Source: Actinomycetes bacterium | GTDB lineage: Bacteria > Actinomycetota > Thermoleophilia > Miltoncostaeales > Miltoncostaeaceae | Direction of reading: 5' to 3' | DNA length: 42,305 nucleotides | Assembly (NCBI GenBank): GCA_024639225.1 | Contig: JAHEIS010000005.1 | Span: 1-42,305 of the forward strand | Shown here: positions 23,703-32,914 of the stretch, piece after piece | Layout: each line of letters starts with the position of its first letter | How positions within the stretch are numbered: position 1 is the first letter of the stretch | The notes under the pieces: generated by a model | The model's input: the letters and a program-made list of their open reading frames with translations, nothing else | What the model was told of the DNA's origin: nothing | Databases searched by the model: none | Translations under genes and position numbers: made by a program

Positions 23703-26597
23703 TCAGCGCGGCAGATCCGCCGCGCTGAGCGAGCCGTCGCGGAAGTCCTCGCTGGTGAGGCCCTTCTCGAAGCGAGCGATCGCGAGGTTCAGACGCCGGA
23801 TGGCCGCCTGCGACACACGCTGGTTGATGATGAGCTGCTCCTGGGTCGCCTTCACCCTGCCGCTCGCGACGGCCGCGATCCTCAGTGCCGGCAGAACGAA
23901 ACCACCCTGAGCGGGAGCCTCACCGTCGCGCACGGCCGAGATGTTCGGAGCGAGGTCGTCATCGCTGAGGCCACCGTCGCGGATGGCCGCCCCGGTGAGT
24001 CCGGCATCGAGGACCTCGTCGAGGCGATTGACCCGCCGCACGGCGGCCTGGGAGATGCGCTGGTTGATGAGCAGCTGCTTCTTGGAGACCTCAAGGCGCG
24101 TGCGGCTCCGCTTGGGAGCCTTGACCACGAGGCGGGGCGGGGCGGTGGCGGCACCGGTGGGAAGCTCGGGATTGCCGGCGATCGCAACCGAGGGGCCGAA
24201 GTCCTGCGGCATGAGCGAGCCGTCACGGATGTCGCGCGAGCTGAGACCCGCGGTCAGGCGCTTCTCCAGCGCGTTCGCGCGGGCGATCGCCGCCTGCGAG
24301 ATGCGCTGGTTGATGAGCAGCTGACGGGCAGTGAGACGGATCCGCGTGTCACTCCGGTCGATACGCAGCTCGACCCGGCGGTTGCGCTGGCGCCCCAGGG
24401 GCGTCGCGTTGGAGTGCAGCGGTCGTGTCTCGCCGTAGCCGATCGCCGTCAACAGACCCCGCGGGACCTTGCCCTTCCTGATCAGGAAGTCGCGCACGGC
24501 CCGTGCCCGCTCGGTGGACAGCCGCTGGTTGAACTCGAACGAGCCGGAGCTGTCGCTGTGGCCACCGACCTCGGTGCGGCGGCCGACGCGCTTGACGAGC
24601 GCCGAGAGCCGGAGCAGGTACGGCCGGCTCTCGGGCCGGAGCGTGCTCGAGCCGACATCGAAGACCACTCTCGACGGGACCGAGAAGTTGACCGGCGGCG
24701 GAGTGGCGACGAGGCGCCCGCCGCGCGTGCGGCGCACAACGACGGTGCCAGCCGTGACCGTGGAGGTGCGGCCGTCGGTGGTCGTGACCGTGACGGACGG
24801 CCGGTAGGTGCCGGGCTCGCTGTAGGCCCGGGTCGGGGCGACCGCGCTCGATGTCGACCCGTCGCCGAATCGCCACAGAATCGCGGCGATCCCGGTCAGC
24901 CCGACGGCGTTCGCCCGGTTGTCACCCGGGGCTCCGGCTCCGGTCGCGGGGTCGAGCGCGATCGTCGCGTCGAACGTGATGCTCGCGTCCGCACCCGGCA
25001 GCAGGACGGGGTTCCCGATCGGCGGAGCCACCGGCTCTTCGGCAACGATCAGGGGTGCCTCGACCTGGCCCATCACGGTGCGCACGACGATGCTCGTCGG
25101 ACCTTCCGGCAGGTCGGGAACCCGGATGTCGATACGGGAGTCGCCCCACTCGCCGGCCAGCTCGGCGGGGACGCCGCCGACCAGAACCTCGGCATCGCCC
25201 TGGAGGCGGCCGAAGTGGGCGCCGACGATGCTCACGACCTCACCGGGAACGATGCCGTCGTCGTCGACCTGGTTGATGACGGGTGGCTCGAGCGGAACGG
25301 CGGGAACCACGGGCTCGGGTGCCAGCTGCACGACAAGGGTCTTCGCCGCGCTCACGCCACCCTTGCCGGCCGGGTTGACGACCCGCACGGCGATGGCGCC
25401 GGGTGCGGTGAGCTGGGCCGGGCCGATGATCGTCGTGAGCGTCCCGGCATTCGCGGCGCTCGTCGGGACGGCGATGCCGTCCAACTGGATGGTGGCCCCG
25501 GGCTCGAATCCGACGCCGGTCACGGCGAGCCGGTAGCTGAAGCCGTCGATCTGAACGGTCCCCGGGGTCAGCGACAGGATCTCCGGGCGGGCAATCACCA
25601 GGAAGGTCCGCGAGCCGGTGGCGCCGCCCGCCGAGCCGACGACGGTGACCGCCTCTGGTCCGGCCTTGGCCAGAGCGGCGGCCGGTAGGCGGGCGATGAG
25701 CGTCGACGCGTTGACGAACGTCGTCGAGCGGAGGATCCCGTCGAAACGGACGCGGCTCGAGGCATCGAAGCCGGACCCCTTCACGGTCAGGTCGAGCGCA
25801 CCGGAGCCCGCGGCGACCGATGTCGGCGCGAGACCGGTCAACGTCGGCGCCGACGGAGCCGGCTTCTTCGACGTGACGCGCAGGTTGATGCCGTTGCTGA
25901 TCCCGCCCAGCTTCGGAGCGTTTCTGACGCGGACACGCACGCGCCCCGCCACGTCGATGTCCTCGGGGCCCAGCTGCGCGCGGAGCCGAGTGGGACTGAC
26001 GAACGTCGTCGGGCGGGAGGCCCTGGCGAGCTCGACGGTGCTCGAGGCGTTGAAGCCGGTGCCCGTTATGACCAGACGGGGGGGCTTGCTGCCGACGCGC
26101 ACCTTGGCCGGCGTGATGGCGCTGATGACGGGGATCGGCGCGGGCGTCAGAGTGAAGGTGGCCGACTCGCTCACCGGCGTGCACGCTCCGTCAGCGAAGC
26201 AGTTGGCCGCGACGACCGACCGGGGGCCGGGCTTGCCGTCGAGGCGACGGGCCTTCACGGTCGCCGTGAACGTCGTGAGCTCGCCGGTGATCGCCTTGCT
26301 CGCGGTGAGGGCCCTACCGTTCCAGAGCAGCGCGAAGGACGTCACGCCCTGGTTGATCTGATCGTCGACGGGCGGTAGTTCCGCCGTCTTCACGCGCAGG
26401 GTCAGCGAGAGGCTCGGGCTGCCCGCGGGCGCGGACGCGGGCGTGAGCGCCTCCACGGGCGCGGCGGCCCGGCTGGGCGCGGCCGCGAGGATCAGCGAAA
26501 CGGCGGTGACCAGCGCGAGAGCAGCGAGGATCCGAGCGATGGAAAGAGCGCTCGGCGGGACGATCCCACGAGCCATGGGAGCGACAAGAATCTGCAT
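23703..26597 (-). CDS. Secreted TIG/PKD/OmpA protein with C-terminal repeats (964 aa)
   Basis: A signal peptide (to about residue 45) is followed by four IPT/TIG-like domains (about 155-240, 250-335, 338-425, 438-520; each begins with P-x-I/L-x-x-x-x-P and contains a GxGF-type turn), a PKD domain (about 565-622, WRFGDGSTSS) and an OmpA-like peptidoglycan-binding domain (about 640-746; GGHSDSSG, NQRLSTERARAV, YGETRPLHSN, RRVEL). Three copies of an unrecognised repeat fill residues 753-964. It probably sits at the cell wall, held by the OmpA domain. The start ATG has no ribosome site; an ATG seven codons later is possible. Upstream is a CCAGTACTGG palindrome (26647-26656) that might be an operator. 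Confidence 0.9.
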   Translation of the reverse strand: MQILVAPMARGIVPPSALSIARILAALALVTAVSLILAAAPSRAAAPVEALTPASAPAGSPSLSLTLRVKTAELPPVDDQINQGVTSFALLWNGRALTASKAITGELTTFTATVKARRLDGKPGPRSVVAANCFADGACTPVSESATFTLTPAPIPVISAITPAKVRVGSKPPRLVITGTGFNASSTVELARASRPTTFVSPTRLRAQLGPEDIDVAGRVRVRVRNAPKLGGISNGINLRVTSKKPAPSAPTLTGLAPTSVAAGSGALDLTVKGSGFDASSRVRFDGILRSTTFVNASTLIARLPAAALAKAGPEAVTVVGSAGGATGSRTFLVIARPEILSLTPGTVQIDGFSYRLAVTGVGFEPGATIQLDGIAVPTSAANAGTLTTIIGPAQLTAPGAIAVRVVNPAGKGGVSAAKTLVVQLAPEPVVPAVPLEPPVINQVDDDGIVPGEVVSIVGAHFGRLQGDAEVLVGGVPAELAGEWGDSRIDIRVPDLPEGPTSIVVRTVMGQVEAPLIVAEEPVAPPIGNPVLLPGADASITFDATIALDPATGAGAPGDNRANAVGLTGIAAILWRFGDGSTSSAVAPTRAYSEPGTYRPSVTVTTTDGRTSTVTAGTVVVRRTRGGRLVATPPPVNFSVPSRVVFDVGSSTLRPESRPYLLRLSALVKRVGRRTEVGGHSDSSGSFEFNQRLSTERARAVRDFLIRKGKVPRGLLTAIGYGETRPLHSNATPLGRQRNRRVELRIDRSDTRIRLTARQLLINQRISQAAIARANALEKRLTAGLSSRDIRDGSLMPQDFGPSVAIAGNPELPTGAATAPPRLVVKAPKRSRTRLEVSKKQLLINQRISQAAVRRVNRLDEVLDAGLTGAAIRDGGLSDDDLAPNISAVRDGEAPAQGGFVLPALRIAAVASGRVKATQEQLIINQRVSQAAIRRLNLAIARFEKGLTSEDFRDGSLSAADLPR
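23706..24341 (-). repeat. Three protein-level repeats (NQRxSQAA) of about 80 residues
   Basis: Units begin near residues 753, 833 and 913 of the OmpA-type protein. Each has the core Q-L-(L/I)-I-N-Q-R-(I/V)-S-Q-A-A, then a helix, G-L-(T/S) and (I/F)-R-D-G-(S/G)-L-x-x-x-D. The core Gln positions are 759, 841 and 921. Confidence 0.85.
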
Positions 26598-29774: not shown

Positions 29775-29993
29775 GGTCGGCGATCGGCGCCGAGGACCGC
29801 CGTTCTTCCCTCGGTTCCTGTGGATCCTTCTGTCGGGAGCATCGATTCACCACACCTTCGGACAGCTGTGGGGTCCGGAACCACGACTTTTGCGGGATTT
29901 CCCTACGACCACCCGGGGCGCATAGTGGCGTCCAACCCCGTGCCGGGCTCCCCCATGCCCCGGCCCAAGCCCACAATCTGATGAAGGCGCCTC

Positions 29994-31415
29994 ATGGATG
30001 ATCCCGTCGCCATCGCACTGATCCTCTCCGGCTCGAGCGCCGTCGTGGCGCTCGCGCTGATCGGACGGCGCATGCTGAAAGAGCGCGAGCAGCGCGCGGC
30101 CGTCGTCGGCGGGGATGTCTTCGCATCCCACGTCAGCCCGGAGCCCACGGCAGCGGCCGCCGCGGCGGAGGCACCGGCCGAGTTCGCTACGCCGGCAGAC
30201 GATGTCTTCTCCGCCCGGATCAGCGGCGAGGCGTCCGCGCCGACGCCGGCCGTCGACGAGCCGACCCCGGTCGAGCCGCCGGCGCCCGCCGTGGCCGGCC
30301 CGGATGTCTTCGACGCCCGCATCTCGGCGGACGCCGGCTCGGCCCCGTCCGACCCCGAGCCCCGGGTCGCGACCCCCGCGGACGCCGATGTCTTCGCGTC
30401 GCACCTGAGCGCGCCCGTCGACGAGCAGGCGACGGAGGCCGTCATCGAGGAGGAGGCCGTTCCGGCGCCGGAGCCAGAGTCGATCGAGGCTCCTCAACCC
30501 GCCCCGGCCACGCCGGGCGACGATGTCTTCGCCGGCCGGATCAACCCCGCGGCGGAGGTCGAGGAGAGCCCCGCGCCGGACGAGGAGGACGAACGCGCGA
30601 CGGAGCCCGCGCCGTCCGTACCGGCCGTCGCCGGCTCCGACGTCTTCGATGCCCGCATCTCCGCGGCTGCCGAGCCCCCTCCCGTCGAGGAGAGTGCATC
30701 CGACCCGTTCGGCCGCTTCATCGGATCGGACGAGCCGGCCGAGGTCACCTCGCCGGGGAACTCGATCTACCCCGACGACACCTGCCGGGCGTTCGCCCAG
30801 GGCCTCAAGGACGACGTCCTCGACCGGGCCCTCACGCTCTTCTGGGCCCTGGCGCGCGAGGGTTCGATCGACTCGAACGATCTCGGCGCCCTGCTGGGTG
30901 CGCGTTCCCGCCAGGCGGGCGCGCTCGTGAGCACGCCCATGAAGCGCCGGTCCGAGGAGATGGACCTTCCGCTGCCCTACGTCATCGGACGCAGCAGCCC
31001 GAGCCGCCTGCGGACCTGGTCAGATCAGTTCGGTATCGCCGAACGGATGGCGGCCGCCCTGCTCGATGAGCAGCAGGCCCGCGACACGGTGGCCGACGAC
31101 GACCCCGAAGGGTTCTCCGGGCTCACGGCCTGGCTCGCTCAACAGGGCGACGCTGTCTTCACCATGAGCCTCGAGGAGATCGACGCCCTCGGCCCGGTCC
31201 CGCTTCCGGAGCACGCGGCGAGCCAGCGCAACTGGTGGGCCAACCGCAGTGGCGGCCCCGGCCACGGCCACGCCGAGGCGTGGTTGAGCGCCGGCCGACT
31301 CGCATACCCCGACCTCAAGGCGGGATCGGTCGTGTTTGAGCTGCTGCCGGGTCTCCAGGATGCCGAGCCGAGCGAAGCGGAGACCGCGCCCGACGAGGCC
31401 GAGCTCACGCGATGA
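29994..31415 (+). CDS. Membrane-anchored protein with DVF(D/S/A)ARIS motif array and DUF7662-like C-terminus (473 aa)
   Basis: An N-terminal helix (about 5-23) is followed by KERE, so the rest is probably cytoplasmic. Residues 41-245 are a Pro/Ala/Glu-rich disordered linker carrying six copies of D-V-F-x-(A/S/G)-(R/H)-(I/V/L)-(S/N), starting at residues 41, 70, 104, 132, 177 and 216, and a degenerate seventh at 237. Residues about 258-345 look like a winged-helix region (LTLFWALAREG, DLGALLGA). Residues about 373-450 resemble DUF7662: WLAQQG, LPEHAASQRNWWANR and AWLSAGR, then VVFEL. The start has GAAGG upstream. It is coupled by ATGA to the next gene. The function is unknown; the array looks like a scaffold of short binding motifs. 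Confidence 0.82.
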   Translation: MDDPVAIALILSGSSAVVALALIGRRMLKEREQRAAVVGGDVFASHVSPEPTAAAAAAEAPAEFATPADDVFSARISGEASAPTPAVDEPTPVEPPAPAVAGPDVFDARISADAGSAPSDPEPRVATPADADVFASHLSAPVDEQATEAVIEEEAVPAPEPESIEAPQPAPATPGDDVFAGRINPAAEVEESPAPDEEDERATEPAPSVPAVAGSDVFDARISAAAEPPPVEESASDPFGRFIGSDEPAEVTSPGNSIYPDDTCRAFAQGLKDDVLDRALTLFWALAREGSIDSNDLGALLGARSRQAGALVSTPMKRRSEEMDLPLPYVIGRSSPSRLRTWSDQFGIAERMAAALLDEQQARDTVADDDPEGFSGLTAWLAQQGDAVFTMSLEEIDALGPVPLPEHAASQRNWWANRSGGPGHGHAEAWLSAGRLAYPDLKAGSVVFELLPGLQDAEPSEAETAPDEAELTR

Positions 31416-32074
31416 GGTACGACCGGCGGGCGGACCGGCTGATCGGCATCATCGCCGGCGCCGCGGTGGTCCTCGCTCTCGTCGCGGGTGTCGCCTGGGG
31501 CCTCGCCCGCGACGATGCCGATGACCCGGCCGCGCGCGCGGACACAACGGCCAGTGGACCGATCGATGACCGCTGCGCCCTCGAGGTGCAGCGGGCGACC
31601 CTTGCGATGCGCGCGGGGGCCGTGGACCGGCTGACGTCGTCGGGCGCGACGATCGCCGCCCTCCCGCCCGGGGGCGACCTCGGGAAGGGCGCCGCAACCG
31701 TGCCCGTCGACAGCGCCACGATGATCAGCTGCCGGCTGACGACCGGCCGCATCGTCACGGACGGCGGCCTGCGATTCGACGTGGCCGGTCAGGCGACCGA
31801 CATCACCGATCTCGTCGTCGACTTCGACTCACAGACGGTGGTCGCCGAGACTCGCTCACCCGGGTTCGAGGGAGTGGTCAGCAGCGTGATCGACACCGGG
31901 GCCATCGATGGTCTCGACCGTGGCGGCGAGGTCATGTACATCATCCCGATCAGCCTGCTGAGCAACGAGGCCGGCACCCTCGACGACGCCCTCCAGAAAG
32001 CTGTGCTGTCCGACGGCACTCTGCCCACAGACGCCACCCTGACCATCGTCGGAGCCAAGCGGCCCCTCGAGTAG
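31412..32074 (+). CDS. Membrane-anchored protein, paralogue of the next gene (220 aa)
   Basis: Helix at about 9-30, then a short linker and an extracytoplasmic domain. Two cysteines, C55 and C107, may form a disulfide. The domain (about 105-215) has DGGLRFDVAGQATDITDLVVD, a beta-sandwich-like pattern seen in secreted proteins with HtaA-like domains of Thermoleophilia; this match is from memory and weak. ATGA overlap with the motif-array gene shows coupled translation. Confidence 0.78.
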   Translation: MRYDRRADRLIGIIAGAAVVLALVAGVAWGLARDDADDPAARADTTASGPIDDRCALEVQRATLAMRAGAVDRLTSSGATIAALPPGGDLGKGAATVPVDSATMISCRLTTGRIVTDGGLRFDVAGQATDITDLVVDFDSQTVVAETRSPGFEGVVSSVIDTGAIDGLDRGGEVMYIIPISLLSNEAGTLDDALQKAVLSDGTLPTDATLTIVGAKRPLE

Positions 32075-32131
32075 GTCGGGCTTCGACCCGCCTCGGAGGC
32101 CGACGCCGCCGGGCCCACCAGGAGACACATG

Positions 32132-32914
32132 ATGAGCAAGGATCCGAACCTCGATCGCCGCATCGCGACGGTCGCCGCCGGCGCGGCGATCATCTTCCTG
32201 GGAGCGGCCGTTCTGTTCTGGGCGACGGGCGCCGGGTCGGGAAGCGACGGGTCGGATCCCGACCCGGCTCAGCCGGCGGAGTCGACCGAGCGGACGCGCG
32301 CGCCGGAGCCCACGGACGCCAGCCCCAAGTCGCCGATCGATGACGCGGGCGACCGCATGGTCGAGGCGGCCCGGAAGCTGCCCCTCCCCGAGGACTGCCA
32401 CGTGCACGTGAACCAGGCCATCATGGCGTCCGACCCGGCGACGGGAGAGGCCTTCGCGGCGATCGGCATCGCGACAGACTCAATCCGTCCCGCTCAACCG
32501 GCGGGTACCGGCGCACACGCGCTGATGGTGCGCAACACGACTCGGGTGGACTGCGATCTGAGCCAGGGGGTCATCGGTACACGGGGCGGCATCCGCTTCA
32601 GCCGTGGCGACCGCAGTGTGGAGCTGCGCCGTGCCCGCATCGACCTGACAAGCGGCTCGATGGCGGTGTTCCCGGAGTCGACCGGCTCGGCTTCGTTCAT
32701 CGGCTCGCGGATCGACCCGGCGACGATCGAGCGCATTGACCAGCCGGGCGAGATGACGGTGGTCATCCCGATGGTGTTCACCGGCGAGCTGTCGCGGCAC
32801 GTCAACGAGCAGCTCGGCATCACGCTGACCGAGACCGGCGAGGTCGTCGGCTCGCTGACGATCACCGCCTCGACCCACCCCATGCCTCTGGCGACCCCCG
32901 ACGCCCACAGCTGA
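32132..32914 (+). CDS. Membrane-anchored paralogue with the same Cys spacing (260 aa)
   Basis: Helix at about 10-30, then a Pro/Asp-rich linker to residue 75 and a domain like that of the previous gene: CHVHVNQ, RVDCDLSQGVIGTRGGIRFSRGD and VELRRARIDL. The two cysteines, C89 and C141, are 52 residues apart, exactly as in the upstream paralogue. I start at the second of two adjacent ATGs because GGAG then lies seven bases upstream. It is the last gene of the three-gene plus-strand set; its stop is 12 bases from the convergent gene. Confidence 0.8.
   Translation: MSKDPNLDRRIATVAAGAAIIFLGAAVLFWATGAGSGSDGSDPDPAQPAESTERTRAPEPTDASPKSPIDDAGDRMVEAARKLPLPEDCHVHVNQAIMASDPATGEAFAAIGIATDSIRPAQPAGTGAHALMVRNTTRVDCDLSQGVIGTRGGIRFSRGDRSVELRRARIDLTSGSMAVFPESTGSASFIGSRIDPATIERIDQPGEMTVVIPMVFTGELSRHVNEQLGITLTETGEVVGSLTITASTHPMPLATPDAHS

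What the first reader, a model, noticed from the sequence alone, without database searches (positions are those of the whole stretch)
30114..30728. Array of six DVFxARIS-type motifs in a disordered linker
In the 473-residue protein the octapeptide D-V-F-x-(A/S/G)-(R/H)-(I/V/L)-(S/N) recurs at residues 41, 70, 104, 132, 177 and 216, with a decayed seventh, separated by 20-37 residues of Pro/Ala/Glu linker. The motif is held while linkers drift, which suggests docking sites for a repeated partner on a membrane-anchored scaffold, joined to a winged-helix-like region and a DUF7662-like domain.
Basis: partly seen in the sequence, partly recalled or inferred. Interest (0 to 1): 0.7.

Follow-up and report, generated by a model that had tools for sequence, protein, structure and literature searches.

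The report
Repeated docking motif on membrane-anchored scaffold
A membrane-anchored protein of an uncultured actinobacterium (apparently class Thermoleophilia) carries seven copies of a short peptide motif on a floppy arm, and the same motif recurs on unrelated proteins of this bacterium and its relatives, which suggests an undescribed bacterial docking code that gathers proteins at the membrane.

Summary
The 473-aa protein (window 29994-31415, +) has a DVFxxRIS-type octapeptide at residues 41, 70, 104, 132, 177 and 216; the 'decayed seventh' (237, DPFGRFIG) is an intact variant. The array is far above chance and looks like a duplicated three-motif block, ABC-A'B'C'.

The new point is that the motif, D-[PVL]-F-[AS]-x-[RH]-[IV]-[SAGD], is not private to this protein. 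In the same genome it forms independent arrays in two unrelated disordered proteins (6 and 4 copies), with one copy in an FhaA homologue. In a sister genus it sits in the disordered N-terminus of the type IV pilus ATPase PilB, in a DUF7662 protein beside an actin-like gene, and in the cytoplasmic tail of a relative of the window's downstream gene, each kept between two species. In the two other arrays synonymous codons are randomised between copies, so the peptide is selected.

Most likely: a multivalent, membrane-anchored docking scaffold. Recurrence and selection are shown; docking is inferred; the partner is unknown. The C-terminus is a MarR/ArsR-like winged helix plus DUF7662. It works like Eps15's DPF arrays without homology.

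The parts
29994..31415 (+). gene of the 473-aa scaffold protein; ATG at 29994 with a GAAGG ribosome-binding-like site at 29984-29988
   Evidence: homology of its C-terminal half to a family in other genomes
30006..30107 (+). N-terminal membrane anchor (hydrophobic aa 5-23, predicted helix aa 15-38), acidic N-flank and basic C-flank (RRMLKEREQR): C-terminus predicted cytoplasmic
   Evidence: sequence; AF2 helix; topology by the positive-inside rule (inference)
30114..30137 (+). motif copy 1 (type A) DVFASHVS, aa 41-48
30201..30224 (+). motif copy 2 (type B) DVFSARIS, aa 70-77
30303..30326 (+). motif copy 3 (type C) DVFDARIS, aa 104-111
30387..30410 (+). motif copy 4 (type A') DVFASHLS, aa 132-139
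30522..30545 (+). motif copy 5 (type B') DVFAGRIN, aa 177-184
30639..30662 (+). motif copy 6 (type C') DVFDARIS, aa 216-223
30702..30725 (+). motif copy 7 DPFGRFIG, aa 237-244, an intact DPF sub-type rather than a decayed copy
   Evidence: same sub-type in the C92 protein (DPFGRFID, DPFSRFVS)
30774..31094 (+). winged-helix domain, aa 261-367, lineage-specific family
   Evidence: AF2 pLDDT 93-97; PDB MarR/ArsR folds; family
31113..31343 (+). DUF7662-like domain, aa 374-450
   Evidence: PF24698, alignment
31412..32074 (+). downstream gene, 220 aa, membrane-anchored, predicted extracytoplasmic domain; overlaps the scaffold stop codon by 4 bases
32129..32914 (+). downstream gene, 261 aa, paralogue of the 220-aa protein; distant relative of an HtaA-domain protein
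   Evidence: blastp E=1e-15 to the 220-aa protein; relatives L085/L122/L291

Best explanation
The protein is a membrane-anchored, multivalent docking scaffold. A single N-terminal helix holds it in the membrane. A disordered Ala/Pro/Glu arm of about 220 residues in the cytoplasm displays seven copies of a short linear motif, D-[PVL]-F-[AS]-x-[RH]-[IV]-[SAGD], and the arm ends in a winged helix and a DUF7662 domain. I propose that the motif folds into about two helical turns on binding (Asp/Pro as N-cap, Phe and Ile/Val four residues apart on one face, Arg/His beside them) and is recognised by one shared cytoplasmic receptor, so that seven weak sites concentrate that receptor, and other motif-bearing proteins through it, at the membrane beside the two co-transcribed extracytoplasmic-domain proteins. 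Shown: array, anchor, domains, recurrence of the motif in unrelated disordered proteins of the same genome and of a sister genus, and selection on the peptide in the other carriers. Inferred: cytoplasmic side, helical binding mode, a single receptor, scaffolding. The receptor was not identified.
For: Array far above chance. In about 841 kb of this genome the motif occurs 21 times against 3.4 +/- 2.0 for 300 scrambled orders of the same residues, and 11 against 0.13 +/- 0.36 (max 2) in A/P/E-rich flanks (this sample includes contigs chosen for hits). Genome-wide, one degenerate DNA pattern gives 10 hits in G000 against 0 for the reversed control, and all 8 forward hits lie in four proteins with A/P/E-rich disordered segments. 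Independent arrays: C92 protein, 354 aa, 6 copies; C95 protein, about 1045 aa, 4 copies. Codon identity between copies equals that expected from codon usage in C92 (0.53 vs 0.55) and C95 (0.63 vs 0.58), so peptide selection rather than recent DNA duplication keeps them alike. Sister genus: DPFAAHISA is 9/9 identical in a badly drifted PilB N-terminus; DPxAGWVSGHP and AAGEDPFAGRF are kept in drifted linkers of a DUF7662 protein; DPFARHVT sits just before the membrane helix of a relative of the window's own downstream gene. PilB is cytoplasmic, which fits a cytoplasmic motif. The AF2 model leaves the arm as coil with pLDDT about 40-65 and no motif docked on the protein's own domains.
Against: No binding partner found and no direct evidence of binding. 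No orthologue with the array is held, so conservation of this particular array could not be measured; its own copies keep some DNA similarity from block duplication (same codon 0.72 vs 0.63 expected). Carriers have no single common pathway: PilB of G000 and FhaA of the sister genus lack the motif. The helical binding mode is only inferred.
Confidence: 0.6

Rival explanations
1. Recent internal duplication without constraint: the array is a neutral by-product of repeat expansion in a GC-rich disordered linker.
For: Copies pair as 1-4, 2-5, 3-6 with 71-83% DNA identity over motif and near flanks in the best two pairs; GAT is used for Asp in 5 of 6 DVF copies although GAC prevails (28 to 12) in the protein.
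Against: The same motif occurs in unrelated proteins with no DNA similarity and with randomised synonymous codons, and is held in drifting orthologous linkers of the sister genus. Linkers between paired copies have drifted apart while the motif has not.
Confidence: 0.1
2. Homotypic stickers: Phe and Arg/His of each motif stick to other copies and drive condensation at the membrane, without a dedicated receptor.
For: Evenly spread aromatic and basic residues in an otherwise A/P/E-rich arm (Phe of the linker lies almost only in the motifs) is the sticker-and-spacer pattern; three proteins of one genome carry arrays.
Against: The order of residues is specific (D first, R/H at +5, I/V at +6) and scrambled orders are absent; single copies in PilB and the HtaA-like relative would be poor stickers on their own.
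Confidence: 0.15
3. Intramolecular or self docking: the motif binds the protein's own winged helix or DUF7662 domain (in cis or in a neighbour), regulating DNA binding or building a polymer.
For: The winged-helix family and the conserved motif carriers were both found in the same two genera; the motif-bearing DUF7662 protein of the sister genus has both parts.
Against: The AF2 model shows no docking (weak test with 11 sequences); most winged-helix paralogues lack the motif, and motif carriers C92, C95, FhaA and PilB lack the winged helix and DUF7662.
Confidence: 0.12
4. The motif is a processing or modification site (protease or kinase target) rather than a docking site.
For: Repeated short sites in flexible cytoplasmic linkers can be protease or kinase targets.
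Against: No Ser/Thr/Tyr is invariant in the motif; seven equal cleavage sites in one linker have no obvious use; the conserved D, F and I/V fit binding better.
Confidence: 0.05

Closest known systems
Eps15 and other eukaryotic endocytic scaffolds with DPF/DPW/NPF arrays (PMC4731787)
   Same: Many copies of a D-P-F-type short motif in a disordered region; there, shared receptors (AP-2 alpha appendage, FCHo/SGIP1 mu homology domain) bind them and gather at the membrane.
   Different: Eukaryotic and non-homologous; the motif there is DPF alone, here eight positions with R/H and I/V at fixed places; no AP-2-like receptor is known in bacteria; here the scaffold has its own membrane helix.
CsoS2 and other bacterial disordered scaffolds with repeated motifs (PMC10484944)
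   Same: A disordered bacterial protein with repeated short motifs that binds many copies of partners.
   Different: Different motifs, no shell or Rubisco here, no membrane anchor in CsoS2; not homologous (from general knowledge and the abstract only).
Membrane-anchored winged-helix proteins such as ToxR/CadC
   Same: One membrane helix and a winged-helix domain on the cytoplasmic side.
   Different: Reverse order here (anchor first, winged helix near the C-terminus), a long linker, and a separate lineage-specific family without a Pfam entry; DNA binding not shown.
DUF7662 (Pfam PF24698)
   Same: C-terminal domain of the window protein and of two sister-genus proteins.
   Different: Function unknown; no paper in the held library names it.
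HtaA-domain proteins (PF04213)
   Same: The downstream 261-aa protein is a distant relative of a G017 protein with an HtaA domain.
   Different: The window proteins themselves do not score against PF04213; haem binding untested.

Membership tests
Eps15-like DPF scaffold (works like) | multiple DPF-type motifs in a disordered region | tested here: met
   7 copies, arm predicted as coil with low pLDDT
Eps15-like DPF scaffold (works like) | recognition by an AP-2 appendage or mu homology domain | not testable with these tools
   no receptor identified; none known in bacteria
Eps15-like DPF scaffold (works like) | homology to Eps15 (EH domains) | tested here: not met
   Pfam finds only DUF7662 in the protein
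DUF7662 (PF24698) | profile match over the curated cut-off of 26 bits | tested here: inconclusive
   22.7 bits in hmmscan, 26.5 bits in the genome search; conserved residues present
Winged helix of the MarR/ArsR type | helix-turn-helix followed by a two-stranded wing | tested here: met
   AF2 order H-H-E-H-H-E-E-H with pLDDT 93-97; best PDB matches are MarR/ArsR proteins, E about 4e-3 and probability 1.0
Winged helix of the MarR/ArsR type | sequence membership in a known Pfam HTH family | tested here: not met
   only weak matches to HTH_IclR, PheRS_DBD1 and FeoC in a few members
Winged helix of the MarR/ArsR type | DNA binding | not testable with these tools
   none
HtaA (PF04213), for the downstream genes | profile match of the window proteins | tested here: not met
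   no match at E<10 for either window protein
HtaA (PF04213), for the downstream genes | homology to a protein with the domain | tested here: met
   tblastn E=4e-6 to L291:869-2074, which matches HtaA at 2.8e-7
Type IV pilus system | encoded in or next to pil genes | tested here: not met
   the window locus has no pil gene among the proteins scanned; only the sister-genus PilB carries the motif
Phage defence system | match to PADLOC models | tested here: not met
   no match

The most novel reading that the evidence does not exclude
A lineage-specific bacterial docking code: one unknown cytoplasmic receptor in these Thermoleophilia recognises the D-[PV]-F-[AS]-x-[RH]-[IV] peptide on the pilus ATPase PilB, on membrane proteins and on dedicated disordered multi-copy scaffolds, and organises them at the cell envelope, much as AP-2 does with DPF arrays in endocytosis.
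Probability: 0.4. Interest if true: 0.8.

Novelty: new variant of a known kind. Interest (0 to 1): 0.62.

Why it matters
Short linear motifs with many-copy scaffolds are common in eukaryotic membrane traffic and signalling, but few families of such motifs are described in bacteria. Here one motif can be followed across several unrelated proteins of one genome, with valency from 1 to 7, and between two genera, with selection on the peptide visible in the codons. If the receptor is found, it gives a defined bacterial case of multivalent docking and a handle on envelope and pilus organisation in a class of actinobacteria known mainly from metagenomes. The finding is testable with peptides alone.

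Tried and rejected
Orthologues of the whole protein: none in 42 genomes of the order, 399 of the class or the named genome collection; the two Streptomyces hits align over 43 residues inside very long unrelated frames and were rejected. FhaA as a general carrier: 42 genomes have FhaA-like matches, but of the twelve loci read only G000 carries the motif, with a looser DPFSPFVP in G007, so the single FhaA copy may be chance (about 0.4 such hits expected per genome for the broad pattern, 0.1 for the narrow one, scaled). Other genera: hits in a DUF948-like protein of G007 (DPFAKHVA) and in an anchored A/P/E-rich protein of G022 (DVFAQHIA) look alike, but about 3-4 such hits are expected by chance over those genomes, so no claim is made; most other hits there lie in folded enzymes or antisense frames. 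PilB of G000 lacks the motif. Tandem-repeat origin: Tandem Repeats Finder sees nothing in the array. DNA-level function of the repeats was not pursued, because codons vary while the peptide is held. The structure of the 261-aa neighbour was too poor (pLDDT 49.5) to search. No plasmid record encodes a relative. No paper names DUF7662; the papers listed for a bacterial 'DPF motif' describe eukaryotic endocytic proteins or unrelated uses, judging by titles and abstracts.

Full report
1. The observation. The open frame 29994-31415 (+) encodes 473 residues, with a plausible ribosome-binding site (GAAGG, 29984-29988). A score for the best six-copy array in the linker is 97.5 against 43.6 +/- 3.4 in 120 shuffles. 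The linker is 22% Ala, 16% Pro, 13% Glu, and its Phe residues lie almost only in the motifs.

2. Internal structure of the array. Comparing copies with their flanks as DNA, the best pairing of the six at every flank size is 1-4, 2-5, 3-6 (one of 15 possible pairings). The types are A = DVFASH[VL]S, B = ATP-D-DVF[SA][AG]RI[SN], C = PAVAG-DVFDARIS. The array is therefore probably a three-motif block that was duplicated. Between paired copies the motif residues agree well while the linkers differ in length and sequence (spacings 29, 34, 28, 45, 39 residues). The 'decayed seventh', DPFGRFIG at 237, is not decayed: the same sub-type occurs in another protein of the genome (DPFGRFID, DPFSRFVS).

3. 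The C-terminal half. Residues 261-367 fold with high confidence as a winged helix (pLDDT 93-97), closest in the PDB to MarR and ArsR regulators, but no Pfam HTH family claims it. The family occurs in G000 (2 copies) and in two genomes of sister genus g9 (12 and 6 matches), in no other of 42 genomes of the order, and in one further genome among 399 of the class. By matching contigs, the g9 genomes are metagenome-assembled Thermoleophilia (L065 and L066 have the same lengths as G017:C35 and G008:C145). Most g9 members read in full share an architecture: membrane helix, basic stretch, disordered linker, winged helix. None of them has the DVF array. Residues 374-450 resemble DUF7662. The arm is predicted as coil throughout, with low confidence, and no motif docks on the protein's own domains.

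4. The motif elsewhere. The first lead came from relatives: the DUF7662 protein of g9 has DPLAGWVS/DPFAGWVS and DPFAGRF in its linker; the relative of the window's downstream gene has DPFARHVT before its membrane helix; and a type IV pilus ATPase (PilB; MshEN plus T2SSE domains) has DPFAAHIS near its N-terminus. A degenerate DNA pattern then gave 21 hits in G000 against 3 for the reversed control, 15 against 1 in G008 and 10 against 2 in G017. A second pattern gave 10 against 0 in G000; all eight forward hits are in four proteins with A/P/E-rich segments: the window protein, the C92 protein (L112:5917-6981; DPFARHVG, DPFSRFVS, DLFAGRID, DPFGRFID, DPFASRIA, DPLAARID), the C95 protein (L272:3452-6589; DPFAGAIA, DPFSSRIA, DPFSDRIL, DPFSDHIS) and an FhaA homologue (L111:5554-6756; DPFAAHVA).

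5. Is it more than chance? In 721 frames from 841 kb of G000 (this sample includes contigs chosen for hits) the motif occurs 21 times against 3.4 +/- 2.0 for scrambled orders of the same residues, and in A/P/E-rich flanks 11 times against 0.13 +/- 0.36. Single copies should be judged more strictly: about 0.4 such hits per genome are expected for the broad pattern, so the FhaA copy alone is only suggestive. The arrays cannot be chance.

6. Is it selected? In C92 and C95, copies of the motif use synonymous codons no more alike than expected from codon usage (0.53 vs 0.55; 0.63 vs 0.58), so they are not recent DNA duplicates and the peptide has been kept. The window copies are a little more alike (0.72 vs 0.63), in keeping with block duplication. 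Between the two g9 species, DPFAAHISA is 9/9 identical in a PilB N-terminus where the alignment is otherwise poor and gapped (a second conserved island, ARFVVPxDGIA, lies further on), and DPxAGWVSGHP and AAGEDPFAGRF are kept in otherwise gapped linkers of the DUF7662 protein.

7. Surroundings. The scaffold stop codon overlaps the start of a 220-aa gene, followed by a 261-aa paralogue (blastp 1e-15); both have a membrane helix and a predicted extracytoplasmic domain, distantly related to a G017 protein with an HtaA domain. In g9 the relative of this gene carries the motif on its own cytoplasmic side and lies next to a winged-helix paralogue. The motif and this pair of families thus travel together. 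In g9 the motif-bearing DUF7662 protein lies beside an actin-like gene in both species. The C95 protein lies upstream of a GGDEF protein.

8. Mechanism. The simplest account is a membrane-anchored multivalent docking arm. The position pattern (Asp, Pro or Val, Phe, small residue, any, Arg or His, Ile or Val, small or polar) suits a short helix formed on binding, with Phe and Ile/Val on one face; this is inference. The receptor is unknown. Eps15 is the nearest functional parallel: fifteen DPF motifs in a disordered region bound by the AP-2 alpha appendage and mu homology domains (PMC4731787). There is no homology. In Rubrobacter, a sister class, type IV pilus genes are under c-di-GMP control through the WhiG/RsiG switch, and RsiG homologues also occur in Thermoleophilia (PMC8325347); the presence of the motif on PilB and next to a GGDEF gene is suggestive but does not place the window protein in that pathway.

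9. Limits. The genomes are fragmented, metagenome-derived assemblies; true orthologues of the scaffold are not held; the enrichment sample is partly chosen; docking, topology and receptor are not shown by experiment.

Noticed in passing
window 23703-26597 (-): A 964-aa TIG/PKD/OmpA protein ends in three copies of an 'INQRISQAAIxRxNxLexxLxxGLxxxDIRDGSLxxxD' repeat; the repeat recurs (34% identity, E 1e-16) in a 717-aa protein at G000:C99 (L082:8482-10635), right after the genome's only other winged-helix paralogue.
   Followed up: partly
L272:3452-6589 and L074:2917-4050: Two motif carriers of different genera (C95 protein; g9 DUF7662 protein) share a second short N-terminal signature, LPD[IV][DE]xVDxx[ED][TD], which may be another docking peptide.
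   Followed up: no
L079:9866-11188 (G008:C68): A soluble protein with winged helix, DUF7662 and a second winged helix, encoded near the pil genes whose PilB carries the motif.
   Followed up: no
G008 and G017 (loci L002-L020): A winged-helix family without a Pfam entry, mostly membrane-anchored, expanded to 6-12 copies per genome in one genus and almost absent elsewhere in the class.
   Followed up: partly
L064:1492-1953 (G230): A 153-aa stand-alone member of the same winged-helix family next to an integrase gene, which hints at mobility.
   Followed up: no
L298:1213-1989 (G007) and L148 (G022), minus strand: Single motif-like peptides (DPFAKHVA; DVFAQHIA) in disordered parts of two membrane-anchored proteins of other genera; not above chance expectation.
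   Followed up: partly
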